Notes under the pieces: model-generated | Databases searched by the model: none | Told to the model about the DNA's origin: nothing | What the model saw: only the letters and a program-made list of their open reading frames with translations | Made by a program: the position numbers and the translations under genes | NCBI RefSeq assembly: GCF_012849555.1 | Contig: NZ_CP051685.1 | Coordinates: forward strand, 4,216,001-4,280,000 | From: Massilia forsythiae | GTDB lineage: Bacteria; Pseudomonadota; Gammaproteobacteria; Burkholderiales; Burkholderiaceae_D | Length of the DNA: 64,000 nucleotides | Direction: 5' to 3' | Shown here: one piece after another, positions 41,282 through 45,820 of the stretch | How the letters are laid out: each line of letters opens with the position of its first letter | How positions within the stretch are numbered: the first letter of the stretch is position 1

Positions 41282-41650
41282 GCCGGTCTTCTTGTCGTTA
41301 TATAAATGGGAAGCCGCCATCATAGCGAAGCGCTTGCCGCATGTCTGCATGCGCAGCCCTTGTACGCCGGCATTGGCGATGCCAGGCGCATGCACATTCA
41401 TATTTTCATTGCAAGCTTATCGATAAGAAAATAGACAACTTTTTTTGTGTTTCTACAAATTTACTACATCCAACAAAATACCTTGTATTAATGCAAATCA
41501 ACCAATAGTATTAAAAAGTTGTATTGATTTAATTGCATCGAGGCAAGCAGTGCCTGCGCAGCATTTGCGGGCCGTAGGAAGTCCAGGTAGCACCGTACCA
41601 CGACACATAAGAGCTCATAACAGCATCACTAAGTCGAGAGAGGACACTGC
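41282..41650. promoter_or_regulatory. AT-rich divergent promoter region upstream of the metalloprotease gene
   Basis: No gene is seen. The part from about 41400 to 41545 is strikingly AT-rich in a GC-rich genome. It contains the palindrome CTTATCGATAAG (41416-41427), a T-tract, and several TATTAA/TTGTAT-like strings that could make promoters, but I could not assign one. Its composition would suit H-NS binding, and an H-NS-family gene lies at 53559-53951. A GAGAGGA site precedes the protease ATG. Confidence 0.5.
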
Positions 41651-44600
41651 ATGAAAACGAAGTCGTCGACCTCACGCCGTCAGCGCGTGCCGCAACAGGC
41701 GCAGCGCGCCCCGGGAATGACATCCATCGCCCTGTGCGTCGCCCTGGCCTTCGGCGCTGCCCTGCCGGCGGCGCAGGCCCAGGCGCAAGCCGCCAAGAGC
41801 GCGCTGAGCCAGCGCGCCGCACCGTTCTGGCAGAGCGCCGGCGTGGTGTCGGACGCGCAGGCCGGTGCCGCCAGGACCAGCGCCGCCGCCAAGACCCCGG
41901 CGCTGTCGCTCAAGCGCTACCATGCGGTCACCCTCGACATGCCGGGCATGCAGTCGCTCACCGCGGGCGCGCCGATGGAGCGCGCCGACGGCGCCGTGAC
42001 CGGCACCCTGACGATTTCGCTGCCGCATCCGGACGGCGGCTTCCAGCGCTTCGTGCTGTCCGAATCGCCGGTCATGGAAGCCGGCCTGGCCGCCAGGCAT
42101 CCGGAGATCAAGACCTATAAAGGCCGCGGCCTGGACGACCCGAGCGCCACGCTGCGCATGGACATCACCCCGCAAGGCTTGCACGCCTCGGTGCGCTCAC
42201 CCAACGGCGGCTGGTACGTCGACCCATACTATGTGCAGGACACCAGCGTGTATGCCGCCTATGCGCGCGGCGACCTGGACAACCAGCACGGACCCTTGAT
42301 CGAAGGCACCGTGGACGAATCGCAGCTGGTACTGTCGCGCAGCTTCTACAAGCCGGGCGATACGGTCGAGGTGCGCGGCTCTGGCTTCGCGCCGGGCGCC
42401 AGCGTCAGCCTGAGCGTGCGCGCCGAGACCGAAGGCGCCTCGCAACTGGCCGGCGTGCCGGCCGCCACCGCCACCGCCGACGGCAAGGGCAATATCGTCG
42501 CCACGCTGGCCGGTGCCGGCAACGGCACCGGCGCCTTCGAAGTGATTGCCAGCGACGGCAACCGCAGCAGCGCCGCCGCCTTCCACGTGCTGGACGCCAA
42601 TTCGGCCGACGTCGCCGTGGCCGGCCAGCTGCGCACCTACCGCCTGGCGCTGGTCAGCGATCCGTCCTACGCCGCCTATCGACCCAATGTCGGCAACGTC
42701 ACTGCGGCCAAGGTCACCCTGATCAACCGCGTTACCCAGGTGTATGAGGAAGAAACCTCGATCCGCCTGGTGCTGATCGACGGCACCGACGCGCTGAACC
42801 TGGACACCGCCGCCAAGATGACCGGTCCCGACGGACCGTGCGGCGGCTCGGCCTGTTTCGCGTCCGATATAAGCACTTCGTGCGGCCCCGACATCCTGGC
42901 CCGCAACCGTATCGTCGCCGGGTTGCTGGCAGGCGCCAGCAACTTCGACATCGGCCACATTGCTCTGGGCCTGAACGGCGGCGGCATCGCCAGCCTGGGC
43001 GTGGTGGGCCGCGCCAGCAAGGCGCAGGGCTGCACCGGCATCCCGACCCCGGTGGGCGACTTCTACGCGGTCGACTACGTGGCGCACGAGATGGGCCACC
43101 AGTTCTCCGGCAACCACACCTTCAACGGTGTGCAACTGAATTGCGCCGGCGGCAACCGCAACACCGGCACCTCGGTCGAGCCGGGCAGCGGCTCCTCGAT
43201 CATGGCCTATGCCGGCATCTGCACCACCGACAACCTGCAGACCCACAGCGACGCCTACTGGTCACAGCGCAGCTTCGACGAGATCGTCGCCTACACCTCG
43301 GGTGCAGAAAATAGCCTGAACGAAGTGCAGATGGGCGTGCTGACCGGCTTCGCCACCGACGGGCAACAATTTCAGCTCGCCTATAACGGCAACCTGTCGG
43401 CGCCGATCGTGCGCGGCGCCAACTTCACCACTGCCGGCATCAAGGCCGCTATCGAGGGCATCGCCGGCTGGCCGGCGGGCGCCATCGTCACCGTCAGCGC
43501 CGTGGGCGACACTGCGTTCACCGTCACCTTCGGCGGCACGCTGGGCGGCGTCAACACGAGTCAGCTGTTCCTGGCCAATGCCAGCGGCGGCGCCAGCGGC
43601 TACATCGGCGAGATCATCGCCGGCGGCCCCACCACGCGCCGCGGCACGGTCTCCACGACCGGCAACACCGCGCCCAACGTGACCGCGCCGGCCGGCTACA
43701 CGATCCCGGTGCGCACCCCGTTCGCCCTGACCGGCAGCGCCACCGACCCGGACGGCGATCCGCTCACCTACATGTGGGAACAGAACGACCGCGGCGCCGC
43801 CACCGGCACCGGCCTGATCAGCAACACCAAGCTCAACGGCCCGCTGTTCCGCCAGTTCGGCACCCGCGCCGTGGTCAGCGCCACCGATACCCTGATCTAC
43901 GATTCGCCGGGCGAGAACCACACCACCGCCGATCCGACCCGCGTGTTCCCGGACATGAAGCAGATCCTGTCCAACAACACCAACGCCGGGACCGGCGTGT
44001 GCCCGACCGCGGCCGCCACCCCGACCGCGGCCGACATCGAGTGCTTCTCGGAGTACCTGCCGACCGCCGCCTACGTCGGCGTTCCCAATGTCAATGCCAA
44101 TCCGGCCTCGCTCAACTTCCGCCTGACCGCGCGCGACGGCCGCGGCGGCGTCAACAGCGCCAACACGCGGCTGACACTGGCGCCGAACGCCGGTCCGTTC
44201 CTGGTCACCTACCCGAACACGGCGACGGTCGTGGATGCGGGCAGCGCCCAGACCGTGACCTGGAGCGTGGCCAATACCGACGTCGCCCCGGTGAACACCG
44301 CCAGCGTCAAGATCACCCTGTCGCTTGACGGCGGCACCACCTTCCCGATCGTGCTGGCCGAGAGCGTGCCGAACAACGGCAGCGCCAAGGTGACCCTGCC
44401 GGCGAACACCAGCAAGACCGCGCGCGTCAAGGTGGAGGCGGTCGGCAACGTGTTCTTCGACGTCTCCAACGCCGACTTTACCATCCGCCTGGCCGGCGAC
44501 GTGAACGGCGATGGCAGTGTGTCGTGCGCCGACCTGGCGGCCGTCAAGGCGGCCTTCGGCAAGCGCAGCGGACAGGCCGGCTTCGACGCGGCCGCCGACG

Positions 44601-44680
44601 TGGTCAAGGACAACGTGATCGACGCCCGCGACCTGGCCTACGTGTCGCAGCGCCTGCCGCAGGGCAGCAGCTGCAACTGA
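41651..44680 (+). CDS. Secreted reprolysin-like zinc metalloprotease with C-terminal dockerin-like module
   Basis: The 1009-residue protein has a signal peptide (hydrophobic core about residues 24-40, cleavage after AQAQA). A propeptide-like region is followed by an Ig-like module near 230-310. The metzincin catalytic domain has the zinc site HEMGHQFSGNH (H479, E480, H483, H489) and a downstream Met-turn SSIMAYAG, as in Reprolysin_4-type peptidases. Beta-sandwich modules follow (NTAPNVTAPAGYTIPVRTPF onward). The last 60 residues resemble a dockerin: a first calcium loop DVNGDGSVSCAD (D950, N952, D954, S956, D961), and a second, degenerate loop DVVKDNVIDARD. A GAGAGGA site precedes the ATG. 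The neighbour downstream encodes a cohesin-domain PEP-CTERM protein, so the two may dock. The fold assignment of the dockerin is by motif only. Confidence 0.9.
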   Translation: MKTKSSTSRRQRVPQQAQRAPGMTSIALCVALAFGAALPAAQAQAQAAKSALSQRAAPFWQSAGVVSDAQAGAARTSAAAKTPALSLKRYHAVTLDMPGMQSLTAGAPMERADGAVTGTLTISLPHPDGGFQRFVLSESPVMEAGLAARHPEIKTYKGRGLDDPSATLRMDITPQGLHASVRSPNGGWYVDPYYVQDTSVYAAYARGDLDNQHGPLIEGTVDESQLVLSRSFYKPGDTVEVRGSGFAPGASVSLSVRAETEGASQLAGVPAATATADGKGNIVATLAGAGNGTGAFEVIASDGNRSSAAAFHVLDANSADVAVAGQLRTYRLALVSDPSYAAYRPNVGNVTAAKVTLINRVTQVYEEETSIRLVLIDGTDALNLDTAAKMTGPDGPCGGSACFASDISTSCGPDILARNRIVAGLLAGASNFDIGHIALGLNGGGIASLGVVGRASKAQGCTGIPTPVGDFYAVDYVAHEMGHQFSGNHTFNGVQLNCAGGNRNTGTSVEPGSGSSIMAYAGICTTDNLQTHSDAYWSQRSFDEIVAYTSGAENSLNEVQMGVLTGFATDGQQFQLAYNGNLSAPIVRGANFTTAGIKAAIEGIAGWPAGAIVTVSAVGDTAFTVTFGGTLGGVNTSQLFLANASGGASGYIGEIIAGGPTTRRGTVSTTGNTAPNVTAPAGYTIPVRTPFALTGSATDPDGDPLTYMWEQNDRGAATGTGLISNTKLNGPLFRQFGTRAVVSATDTLIYDSPGENHTTADPTRVFPDMKQILSNNTNAGTGVCPTAAATPTAADIECFSEYLPTAAYVGVPNVNANPASLNFRLTARDGRGGVNSANTRLTLAPNAGPFLVTYPNTATVVDAGSAQTVTWSVANTDVAPVNTASVKITLSLDGGTTFPIVLAESVPNNGSAKVTLPANTSKTARVKVEAVGNVFFDVSNADFTIRLAGDVNGDGSVSCADLAAVKAAFGKRSGQAGFDAAADVVKDNVIDARDLAYVSQRLPQGSSCN

Positions 44681-44705
44681 CCACGTAACGGCGACAGGCA
44701 ATCCG

Positions 44706-44731
44706 GCTGCCGCGACCATCGTCGCGGCAGC
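44706..44731. other. Strong hairpin between the metalloprotease and cohesin genes
   Basis: GCTGCCGCGAC (44706-44716) and GTCGCGGCAGC (44721-44731) form a perfect 11-bp stem with a CATC loop. There is no poly-T after it, so it is not a standard terminator. It could slow decay of, or separate, the two parts of a bicistronic transcript. Confidence 0.6.
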
Positions 44732-44775
44732 ACCTCATAAGACATGCCCGAAGGGGCGACAAGGAGAATGACAAC

Positions 44776-45360
44776 ATGAAGCGATGGAAAACACTTTTCG
44801 GCGCCGTCGCGCTGAGCGCGGCCTGCGTACCGGCCTGGGCCGTGCCGACGCTGAGCTTCACCTCGCCCGGCAGCGTGCCGCCCGGTTCGTTCGTCGGCGT
44901 GGACGTCGTGATCTCGGACGTGAGCGACCTGTATGCCTACAACTTCTCGATCACCTTCGATCCGAAGGTGGTGGACGTGGGTGGCGTCAGCCAGCAGGGT
45001 TTCCTAAGCAGTGCCGGTCCGACCTTCGGCACCACGGGCGAGATCGACAACAGCACAGGCATCATCTCGTTCGCGGGCTATACGCTGGTCGGCCCGCAGG
45101 CAGGTGCATCCGGCAGCGGCAGCTTGCTGCACATCACGTTCAACGCGCTGGCGAACGGGGTGTCGTCGCTGAATTTCTCCGACCTCGTGTTCCTCGACAG
45201 TAATTTGAACGATATCGCGGTCACCGCGAATCCCGGGTCGGTGACGATCAGCACGATCGACGTGCCGGAGCCGGGCAGCTGGATGCTGGTGGGGATCGGC
45301 GCGGTTGCCGCAGCCGCGCTGCGCCGCCGTACCGGTGCCCGTTGCGCCGCCTGCGCCTGA
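44776..45360 (+). CDS. Cohesin-domain protein with PEP-CTERM sorting signal
   Basis: The 194-residue protein has a signal peptide (residues 1-22, ending AWA). A single cohesin-like beta-sandwich follows: VGVDVVISDVSDLYAYNFSI, then TFDPKVVDVGGV, the ISFAGYTL and GSLLHITFNALA strands, and SSLNFSDLVFLDS. This order is typical of type I cohesins and of cohesin-like modules in PEP-CTERM proteins. The C-terminus is a PEP-CTERM signal: VPEPGSWM, a hydrophobic helix, and RRR. Exosortase would cut it and attach the mature part to the cell surface or exopolysaccharide. No exosortase gene is in the window. An AAGGAG site precedes the ATG. The position right after a dockerin-bearing protease suggests it is the receptor for that enzyme. 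Confidence 0.92.
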   Translation: MKRWKTLFGAVALSAACVPAWAVPTLSFTSPGSVPPGSFVGVDVVISDVSDLYAYNFSITFDPKVVDVGGVSQQGFLSSAGPTFGTTGEIDNSTGIISFAGYTLVGPQAGASGSGSLLHITFNALANGVSSLNFSDLVFLDSNLNDIAVTANPGSVTISTIDVPEPGSWMLVGIGAVAAAALRRRTGARCAACA

Positions 45361-45378
45361 ACGCGCAGCGCCGGCTGC

Positions 45379-45413
45379 GCCGGACCGGCCGCCAGGCCGG
45401 CCCGGCTTTTTTT
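45379..45413 (+). terminator. Rho-independent terminator after the cohesin gene
   Basis: A stem of GCCGG-A-CCGGCC (45379-45390) with GGCCGG-C-CCGGC (45395-45406), closing a GCCA loop and with one mismatch, is followed by seven T residues (45407-45413). It lies 19 bases after the stop codon. Confidence 0.92.
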
Positions 45414-45820
45414 CATTCGTGGTCCTGGCGCGCCTGCTCGATGCCGAGCGCGAGGTCGCCGAGGAAGGCGGCGCCCTTGCCCGACAGCGCGATGTCCGGC
45501 ACCGCCAGCTCGACCAGGCAGGCCAGCGACTGGCGGAACCAGTCCATGTCGGTGCCCATCAGCGGCAGCGCGTGGGCGTCGTTCAGGTAGTGCACGGCGC
45601 GCGCCAGCAGGCCGGTATCGCGCCCGTGGCCGGCCACCAGCGGGGCGAAGTCGGCGGCTTCGCGCGCGAACTTCGCCGCCAGGGTTTCCAGGATGTCGCG
45701 CGAGACCTGCGGTTGCCCGGCGGCCAGCACGACGTGCGCCAGTTCCAGGCAGGCCTCGTGCAGGCCGGGGATGTCGACGCCATCGGCGTCGGAGTCGGAA
45801 TGGAAATCGGTATCTGTCAT
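45413..45820 (-). CDS. Hypothetical protein, 135 aa
   Basis: I do not recognise the family. The protein is soluble and acidic, with no signal peptide. After a polar start (TDTDFHSDSDADG) it appears all-helical: IPGLHEACLELAHVVLAAG, VSRDILETLAAKFAREA, DTGLLARAVHYLNDA, MDWFRQSLACLVELAVP and the last helix. This resembles small helical-bundle proteins, but no motif identifies it. Its stop codon lies at the edge of the T-run of the convergent terminator. It is separated from the 3-hydroxybutyrate dehydrogenase gene by 66 bases in the same orientation and may be co-transcribed. Confidence 0.75.
   Translation of the reverse strand: MTDTDFHSDSDADGVDIPGLHEACLELAHVVLAAGQPQVSRDILETLAAKFAREAADFAPLVAGHGRDTGLLARAVHYLNDAHALPLMGTDMDWFRQSLACLVELAVPDIALSGKGAAFLGDLALGIEQARQDHE

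What the first reader, a model, noticed from the sequence alone, without database searches (positions are those of the whole stretch)
41651..45360. Dockerin-bearing secreted protease next to a PEP-CTERM cohesin protein: possible cell-surface docking pair
The protease gene ends in a dockerin-like module with one canonical calcium loop (D950, N952, D954, D961) and a degenerate second loop. The next gene encodes a protein whose only module is cohesin-like, flanked by a signal peptide and a PEP-CTERM signal. Cohesin-dockerin pairs are best known from clostridial cellulosomes, where they assemble enzymes on the cell surface. Here the arrangement would hold one protease on the surface of a Gram-negative cell through an exosortase-processed anchor. 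The gene order, same orientation and shared terminator after the second gene support a functional pair. The docking itself is inferred.
Basis: partly seen in the sequence, partly recalled or inferred. Interest (0 to 1): 0.75.

Follow-up and report, generated by a model that had tools for sequence, protein, structure and literature searches.

The report
Protease docked by exosortase-sorted cohesin
A Gram-negative bacterium appears to carry a two-gene kit in which a secreted protease ends in a plug (dockerin) and the next gene makes a matching socket (cohesin) bearing an envelope-sorting tag, so the cell can probably keep the protease at its surface or in its slime instead of losing it.

Summary
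Protease 41651-44680 ends in a Pfam-significant type I dockerin; gene 44776-45360 is a cohesin with a PEP-CTERM tail. They are the only cohesin match and the only above-cut-off dockerin in a 6.37-Mb genome that also has two exosortase matches and 35 PEP-CTERM places. Of 80 protease homologues, 49 of 53 with a dockerin have a cohesin gene with a PEP-CTERM-like tail in the same locus; 0 of 27 without a dockerin do. In one group the cohesin gene lies upstream and divergent, yet the pair is kept. Five window flanking genes recur in only 2 of 48 other pair loci. Betaproteobacterial proteases lacking the dockerin stop just before it and lack the cohesin. AlphaFold2 on two tethered pairs from relatives gave pTM 0.76 and 0.70, above my estimate for undocked domains. 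Similar layouts, with weaker matches, occur with a GDSL hydrolase, a glucose/sorbosone-dehydrogenase-like protein and a multicopper oxidase. Best reading: one-enzyme docking to an exosortase-sorted cohesin. Binding and final location are unproven. New variant of a known kind.

The parts
41651..44680 (+). Secreted M12B/reprolysin-like metalloprotease gene, 1009 aa, with C-terminal dockerin (signal peptide judged by eye)
   Evidence: ORF; Pfam Reprolysin families E 2e-30 to 4e-13 and Dockerin_1 E 6.4e-11
42692..43234 (+). Catalytic domain (Reprolysin_2, residues 348-528)
43085..43117 (+). Zinc-binding motif HEMGHQFSGNH (residues 479-489)
   Evidence: H479, E480, H483, H489 invariant in 23 aligned sequences
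44492..44656 (+). Type I dockerin (residues 948-1002); Cys959, and Cys1008 just after it, could form a disulfide clasp (inferred)
   Evidence: nearest solved dockerin 2y3n_B, E 1.1e-13 for the profile of 21 dockerins
44706..44731 (+). Intergenic stem-loop (11-bp stem, 4-nt loop), no T-run
   Evidence: z -3.33 for 44681-44775; a comparable hairpin in 18 of 21 family loci by my reading
44776..45360 (+). Small cohesin protein gene, 194 aa: signal peptide (by eye), cohesin, PEP-CTERM
44851..45249 (+). Cohesin domain (residues 26-158)
   Evidence: E 4.2e-15; six-frame hit at the same place
45259..45330 (+). PEP-CTERM sorting signal (residues 162-185)
45387..45408 (+). Intrinsic-terminator-like hairpin(s) followed by T-run
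   Evidence: number of sites in the region not above shuffles

Best explanation
The two genes form a one-enzyme docking system. The protease is secreted with a C-terminal calcium-loop dockerin. The small downstream protein is exported, and an exosortase is expected to recognise its PEP-CTERM tail and fix or sort it into the outer envelope or exopolysaccharide matrix. Its single cohesin then captures the dockerin and keeps the protease at the cell or in the matrix. Shown here: both modules, the sorting tag, exosortase matches in the genome, pairing kept across changed gene order and changed neighbours, and joint absence. Supported by prediction only: the dockerin packs against the cohesin. Inferred: exosortase processing, final location, stoichiometry control by the intergenic stem-loop, and the benefit (local proteolysis, less loss to neighbours).
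For: Module hits above curated cut-offs. One cohesin match and one above-cut-off dockerin in the whole genome, and they are neighbours. Two exosortase matches and 35 PEP-CTERM places. Of 80 protease homologues: dockerin with cohesin 49, dockerin without cohesin 4, neither 27, cohesin alone 0; 49 of 49 cohesin partners end in a PEP-CTERM-like tail by pattern. Cohesin downstream on the same strand in 35 (window included), on the opposite strand upstream in 14, one change on the tree. Five window flanking genes recur in 2 of 48 other pair loci, protease and cohesin in 48 of 48; 80 of 1128 genome pairs share a flank homologue (loci hold about 4 kb each side, some less). Dockerin-less copies, 3 of 24 protease-bearing family genomes, end just before the dockerin, and no cohesin lies beside them. 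Family survey of 294 genomes: short cohesin versus dockerin 21/1/17/255, Fisher p 9e-21, not corrected for kinship. Both profiles match partner chains of the same solved complexes, e.g. 2y3n, 1ohz, 2ccl, 2vn5, 5lxv. Tethered AlphaFold2 of relatives' pairs: pTM 0.76 (290 aa) and 0.70 (312 aa), both modules above pLDDT 90 over most of their length. [quoted passage not shown]
Against: Four dockerin-bearing homologues (records named Rubrivivax, all MAGs: L159, L163, L166, L168) have no cohesin in the locus, and PF00963 finds none in their genomes at E 0.01; a tentative unlinked one was found for L163 only. Joint presence and absence rests on three independent changes of the dockerin, too few for significance (sign test p 0.25-0.5); the Duganella/Pseudoduganella cases are one clade, probably one event. 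Correlated divergence of dockerin and cohesin (partial r 0.19, permutation p 0.004) is not specific: 11 control stretches of the protease range from -0.36 to 0.32. No interface coordinates or error matrix were available; tethering may favour docking. The window's own pair was not modelled, since its frames do not match. An orphan PEP-CTERM cohesin exists in G125.
Confidence: 0.8

Rival explanations
1. The pair binds as proposed, but the exosortase cleaves and releases the cohesin, so the complex is a co-secreted module in the exopolysaccharide matrix or medium and not a cell-surface anchor.
For: A PEP-CTERM protein of the floc former Aquincola tertiaricarbonis is proposed to become part of the extracellular polymer (PMC9850573, passages). 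Haft 2006 states that no localisation data existed then (PMC1569441, passages).
Against: A dedicated cohesin with a sorting tag makes most sense for retention; no direct evidence either way here.
Confidence: 0.3
2. The cohesin is a periplasmic partner, for example a chaperone or inhibitor that keeps the protease inactive during export, and anchoring is secondary.
For: Close pairing with one protease and a neighbouring gene are also typical of enzyme-inhibitor pairs (general knowledge).
Against: A similar layout recurs with a GDSL hydrolase and, with weaker matches, with a dehydrogenase and an oxidase, which should not need an inhibitor. 49 of 49 partners keep a sorting-tag-like tail.
Confidence: 0.1
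3. Dockerin and cohesin are inherited together without binding: the dockerin is a structural cap and the cohesin binds something else (linkage only).
For: Only three independent changes of the dockerin on the tree; non-specific distance correlation; four dockerins without a nearby cohesin.
Against: The pair survives a change of gene order and almost complete turnover of neighbours; the genome holds no other cohesin match or above-cut-off dockerin; AlphaFold2 pTM values.
Confidence: 0.08

Closest known systems
Single-cohesin surface anchors of Clostridium thermocellum such as OlpA and OlpC (complexes 3ul4 and 4dh2; their domain make-up is recalled)
   Same: A single cohesin on an envelope-attached protein captures one dockerin-bearing protein.
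   Different: Those use SLH domains on a Gram-positive wall within a cellulosome; here a PEP-CTERM/exosortase tag in a Gram-negative, no cellulosome, and the cargo is a protease.
Non-cellulosomal cohesins and dockerins, e.g. Archaeoglobus fulgidus cohesin 2xdh (best Foldseek hit)
   Same: Cohesin and dockerin outside cellulose degradation.
   Different: I know of no exosortase-tagged partner beside a protease there (recall only); [quoted passage not shown]
NCBIfam NF041540 GC-type dockerin domain-anchored protein
   Same: NCBI's name already supposes that a dockerin anchors proteins outside cellulosomes.
   Different: The window's dockerin scores 14.8 against a cut-off of 29; the G618 oxidase scores 29.5.
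Cellulosome cip-cel operon with intergenic stem-loops that set stoichiometry (PMC4423207, PMC10311766; search listing with titles and the start of their abstracts)
   Same: Stem-loop between genes of a cohesin-dockerin system.
   Different: Here only the predicted structure is seen; no RNA data.

Membership tests
Cohesin (PF00963) | Profile match above curated cut-off over the domain | tested here: met
   56.6 bits against 24.1, profile 3-139 of 139
Cohesin (PF00963) | Cohesin beta-sandwich fold | tested here: met
   Homologue L067 modelled: the 50 listed Foldseek matches are cohesin or cellulosome-scaffoldin entries by title (3kcp and 4fl4 by the chain names), best 2xdh E 2.1e-11; the window protein itself was not modelled
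Type I dockerin (PF00404) | Profile match above cut-off over both repeats | tested here: met
   42.7 bits against 22.9, profile 1-56 of 57
Type I dockerin (PF00404) | Two canonical calcium loops | tested here: inconclusive
   Loop 1 canonical; loop 2 keeps D at positions 1, 5 and 12 but not N at 3 or G at 6; 11 of 21 aligned dockerins keep D-x-N-x-D in loop 2 (my count)
Cognate cohesin-dockerin pair | High-affinity calcium-dependent binding | not testable with these tools
   Only indirect: pTM of tethered models of relatives and conserved pairing
PEP-CTERM/exosortase system | PEP-CTERM tail above cut-off | tested here: met
   TIGR02595 22.8 against 16, PF07589 29.0 against 20.7
PEP-CTERM/exosortase system | Exosortase in the same genome | tested here: met
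   Two PF09721 matches, E 6.6e-75 and 3.2e-69
M12B reprolysin-like metzincin | Profile match, HExxHxxxxxH and Met-turn | tested here: met
Cellulosome | Scaffoldin with several cohesins serving several dockerin enzymes | tested here: not met
   One cohesin match and one above-cut-off dockerin in the whole genome
GC-type dockerin NF041540 | Score above curated cut-off | tested here: not met
   14.8 bits against 29

The most novel reading that the evidence does not exclude
A general Gram-negative docking system: exosortase-sorted single-cohesin proteins act as surface or matrix sockets for dockerin-tagged exoenzymes. The same two-gene plan has been taken up by an M12B protease, a GDSL hydrolase, a glucose/sorbosone-type dehydrogenase and a multicopper oxidase, and possibly in fused form by a subtilase. 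An intergenic stem-loop may set enzyme-to-anchor ratios, as in cellulosome operons.
Probability: 0.5. Interest if true: 0.82.

Novelty: new variant of a known kind. Interest (0 to 1): 0.68.

Why it matters
The role of cohesins and dockerins outside cellulosomes is described as unknown (PMC5244752, passages). This is a minimal case, one plug and one socket with a sorting tag, in a genome rated 100% complete, and several relatives with the pair are named strains, so the question becomes directly testable. It would also give exosortase-sorted proteins a concrete job: holding exoenzymes. A natural Gram-negative docking pair could serve as a surface-display tool. My library searches found no paper holding both 'PEP-CTERM' and 'dockerin', both 'PEP-CTERM' and 'cohesin domain', or all of 'cohesin', 'dockerin' and 'PEP-CTERM'. 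One paper holds 'exosortase' and 'dockerin'; in its passages they are separate topics. Haft 2006 on the PEP-CTERM system holds neither 'dockerin' nor 'cohesin' in its main text. Two papers hold 'dockerin' and 'Massilia', 28 came up for non-cellulosomal cohesin or dockerin-like (20 listed) and 26 for five broader terms (15 listed); of these I saw only listings, apart from PMC5244752. The library holds open-licence papers only, and the 2009 review of non-cellulosomal modules (PMC3035643) and the 2012 exosortase paper (PMC3256604) are not in it, so prior mention there cannot be excluded.

Tried and rejected
Considered and rejected. (1) Chance module matches: rejected, since scores are far above cut-offs and the two modules are adjacent and alone in the genome. 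(2) A cellulosome: rejected, one cohesin only. (3) A secretin-borne cohesin as partner: three long cohesin ORFs of other family members that I checked are secretins, but the window genome has no second cohesin match. (4) A nitrogen-sigma promoter: the -24/-12 pattern (recalled) gave 32 window matches against 35.5 expected, none just upstream of the protease; no sigma-70-like site was found in 41380-45700 either. (5) Correlated divergence as proof of binding: not specific. (6) Sign test on joint gain and loss: only three changes, no power. (7) A first longest-ORF listing of loci was misled by antisense frames in GC-rich DNA, so coordinates from profile hits were used. (8) My automatic choice of cohesin start codons was wrong in some loci (very short intergenic stretches, e.g. 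L130), so its hairpin count (z below -2 in 19 of 35; longest stem at least 9 bp in 14 of 35) is rough; the 18 of 21 is my reading of the folds printed.

Rows dropped before counts: the short-cohesin set leaves out G117 (a 136-aa frame beside what looks to me like secretin pieces) and counts G210 once although it has two. G223's 479-aa and G159's 291-aa open frames were counted as short because the gene inside is. L076 (broken protease) was left out of protease alignment A1 but kept in A2 and A3. The tether alignments used 44 rows (A4) and 38 rows (A5) picked from the pairs at hand. Class counts leave out the window genome. The 79 loci (from the best 80 of 188 confirmed, found through two short peptide patterns) and the 294 family genomes overlap in part, so they are not independent samples.
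Full report
What is there. The two ORFs are as described: 41651-44680 (1009 aa) and 44776-45360 (194 aa), same strand, 95 bases apart. The first is a reprolysin-like M12B metalloprotease (PF13574, E 2e-30) ending in a type I dockerin (PF00404, E 6.4e-11). The second is a cohesin (PF00963, E 4.2e-15) followed by a PEP-CTERM tail. All score above Pfam's curated cut-offs. The genome (6.37 Mb, 3 contigs) holds one cohesin match and one dockerin above cut-off, namely these two; a second dockerin match at E 0.23 is below cut-off. It holds 35 PEP-CTERM places and two exosortase matches. The nearest protease homologues are from records named Herbaspirillum sp. SJZ107 and Massilia horti; family names used below are my own grouping of record titles.

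Conservation in the family. In 294 family genomes, 68 have a cohesin and 38 a dockerin. Many cohesin ORFs are long; three that I checked are secretins. The short cohesins are another class: 22 genomes by my sorting, of which 21 also have a dockerin (exception G125). In these 21 genomes, window included, a dockerin frame lies just upstream of the short cohesin on the same strand, with 21 to 147 bases between stop and chosen start. A search with residues 320-940 of the protease, without the dockerin, found it in 24 of 294 genomes: the 21 above, plus G067, G177 and G283, whose proteins stop at ...FFDVSNANF(T/I)IN, just before the dockerin, with no short cohesin matched in those genomes (G177 has two long ones).

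Conservation beyond. A scan of one genome per species kept the best 80 of 188 confirmed relatives, 79 distinct loci. Profiles made from my alignments classed 80 proteases (79 and the window): dockerin with cohesin 49, dockerin without 4, neither 27, cohesin alone 0. The tails of 49 of 49 partners fit a PEP-CTERM-like pattern. The 27 without are 22 actinomycetes, whose proteins carry a different C-terminus in those that I printed, four Duganella/Pseudoduganella in one clade (three of them the genomes just named) and one MAG labelled Acidobacteria. In the Massilia/Duganella/Rugamonas relatives the cohesin gene is downstream on the same strand (35 loci, window included); in the Roseateles/Paucibacter/Rubrivivax group it is upstream on the opposite strand (14 loci), a single change on the tree. 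The window's five neighbouring genes recur in 2 of 48 other pair loci, whereas protease and cohesin are in 48 of 48; 80 of 1128 genome pairs share any flank homologue (loci hold about 4 kb each side, some less). The pair therefore persists while gene order and neighbours change, which speaks for a functional tie rather than chance linkage.

Against. Four MAGs named Rubrivivax have a dockerin but no cohesin in the locus. PF00963 finds none in their genomes; my cohesin profile finds a tentative unlinked one for L163 (193-aa frame, E 1.9e-14), while its other hits cover mainly the tail. In these four the Lys-Arg after the first dockerin helix, nearly invariant in 21 paired dockerins, is missing; but paired L160 lacks the Arg too. 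The dockerin changed three times on the tree; the cohesin goes the same way in 2 to 3 of these and never the other way, but three changes cannot reach significance. Dockerin and cohesin distances correlate beyond the protease (partial r 0.19, p 0.004), but 11 control stretches of the protease do so from -0.36 to 0.32, so I give this no weight.

Structure. The dockerin profile best matches solved dockerin 2y3n_B (E 1.1e-13), and the cohesin profile matches the partner chain 2y3n_A and others; several solved complexes are matched on both sides. Because only single chains could be folded, I used loci in which the two genes share a frame and read through the stop between them. For L067 mean pLDDT was 86.9 and pTM 0.76 over 290 residues, with a disordered linker at 78-105. 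For L119, from the window's part of the tree, 82.5 and 0.70 over 312 residues. My arithmetic from the TM-score formula gives about 0.59 and 0.48 if the dockerin were placed at random, so both values imply a placed dockerin. This is an estimate: no coordinates or error matrix were seen, and no mismatched pair was run as a control. Foldseek placed the L067 model nearest to a non-cellulosomal archaeal cohesin, 2xdh (E 2.1e-11); the 50 listed of 116 matches at E 0.001 are cohesin or cellulosome-scaffoldin entries.

Other enzymes. G210 has a second pair: a 780-aa GDSL hydrolase with a half dockerin (16.6 bits, below cut-off 22.9) beside a cohesin (38.2 bits) whose VPAP-type tail is seen by eye only; neither Pfam nor NCBIfam reports a PEP-CTERM there. 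In 369 genomes of the class, 22 have cohesins and 42 dockerins. Without the window genome the overlap is 6 (Fisher p 0.02), and in each of the six at least one dockerin lies in the same frame as a cohesin or within about 3 kb. Two of the six show the same plan: G586, a glucose/sorbosone dehydrogenase-like protein with dockerin, then a cohesin with a VPLPA-like tail; and G618, a multicopper-oxidase-like protein with dockerin, then a cohesin with a VPLP-like tail. Many of these matches lie near or below cut-offs: G586 cohesin 20.9 of 24.1, dockerin 21.7 of 22.9; G618 cohesin 24.3 of 24.1, Dockerin_1 17.6 of 22.9 but GC-type dockerin 29.5 of 29; both tails below. The other four have different layouts.

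Stem-loop. Between the genes lies an 11-bp stem-loop at 44706-44731, without a T-run; the intergenic stretch folds at -35.6 kcal/mol, z -3.33. By my reading, comparable hairpins lie in 18 of 21 family loci, not in L064, L072 and L074; in 35 co-directional loci none has five T in the eight bases after its longest stem. Stem-loops set enzyme-scaffold ratios in a clostridial cellulosome operon (PMC4423207, PMC10311766; titles and starts of abstracts). A similar role here is a guess.

Mechanism. Secretion, capture of the dockerin by the cohesin, and exosortase-dependent fixing of the cohesin in envelope or matrix is the simplest account. A PEP-CTERM protein of Aquincola tertiaricarbonis is reported to help bind exopolysaccharide to cells in flocs (PMC9850573, passages), so the matrix may be the real place. 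Export routes were not tested and signal peptides were judged by eye.

Place among known things. It works like single-cohesin anchors of clostridia (recalled) but uses another anchor in another kind of cell, and it is not a cellulosome. Both modules are family members by tested profile; binding is not tested. Hence: new variant of a known kind.

Noticed in passing
window 44706-44731: G+C-rich stem-loop without T-run between protease and cohesin genes, comparable hairpins in 18 of 21 family loci by my reading
   Followed up: partly
window 44525-44527 and 44672-44674 (Cys959, Cys1008): The only two cysteines of the dockerin region, at loop-1 position 10 and near the C-terminus; the first is invariant and the second nearly so in 21 aligned dockerins. 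Possible disulfide clasp.
   Followed up: no
L083 (G210:C7:144000-152000): Second pair in one genome: GDSL hydrolase with half dockerin beside a cohesin
   Followed up: partly
L087:700-4320 (G231:C38): One 1207-aa frame that reads cohesin-like region (by eye), weak PEP-CTERM match (16.3 of 20.7), subtilase, dockerin: perhaps the same two genes fused, or an assembly error
   Followed up: partly
L247 (G586:C501) and L248 (G618:C112): Dehydrogenase-like and multicopper-oxidase-like dockerin proteins followed by VPLP-tailed cohesins
   Followed up: partly
L012, L013, L026: Secretins carrying a C-terminal cohesin in family genomes; their dockerin partners, if any, are unknown
   Followed up: no
L082:4160-4741: Orphan PEP-CTERM cohesin in G125, whose genome has no dockerin match at E 0.001
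   Followed up: no
L159, L163, L166, L168: Dockerins without adjacent cohesin lack the Lys-Arg that is nearly invariant in 21 paired ones
   Followed up: partly
L104 / L076 (G291): Protease copy with an internal stop while the dockerin frame and cohesin gene remain
   Followed up: no
L171: Protease from a MAG labelled Acidobacteria nests inside the Rubrivivax group: transfer or misbinned contig
   Followed up: no
G259:C18, G227:C13, G107:C5: Dockerin-like modules inside open frames of about 12,800 to 15,900 aa
   Followed up: no
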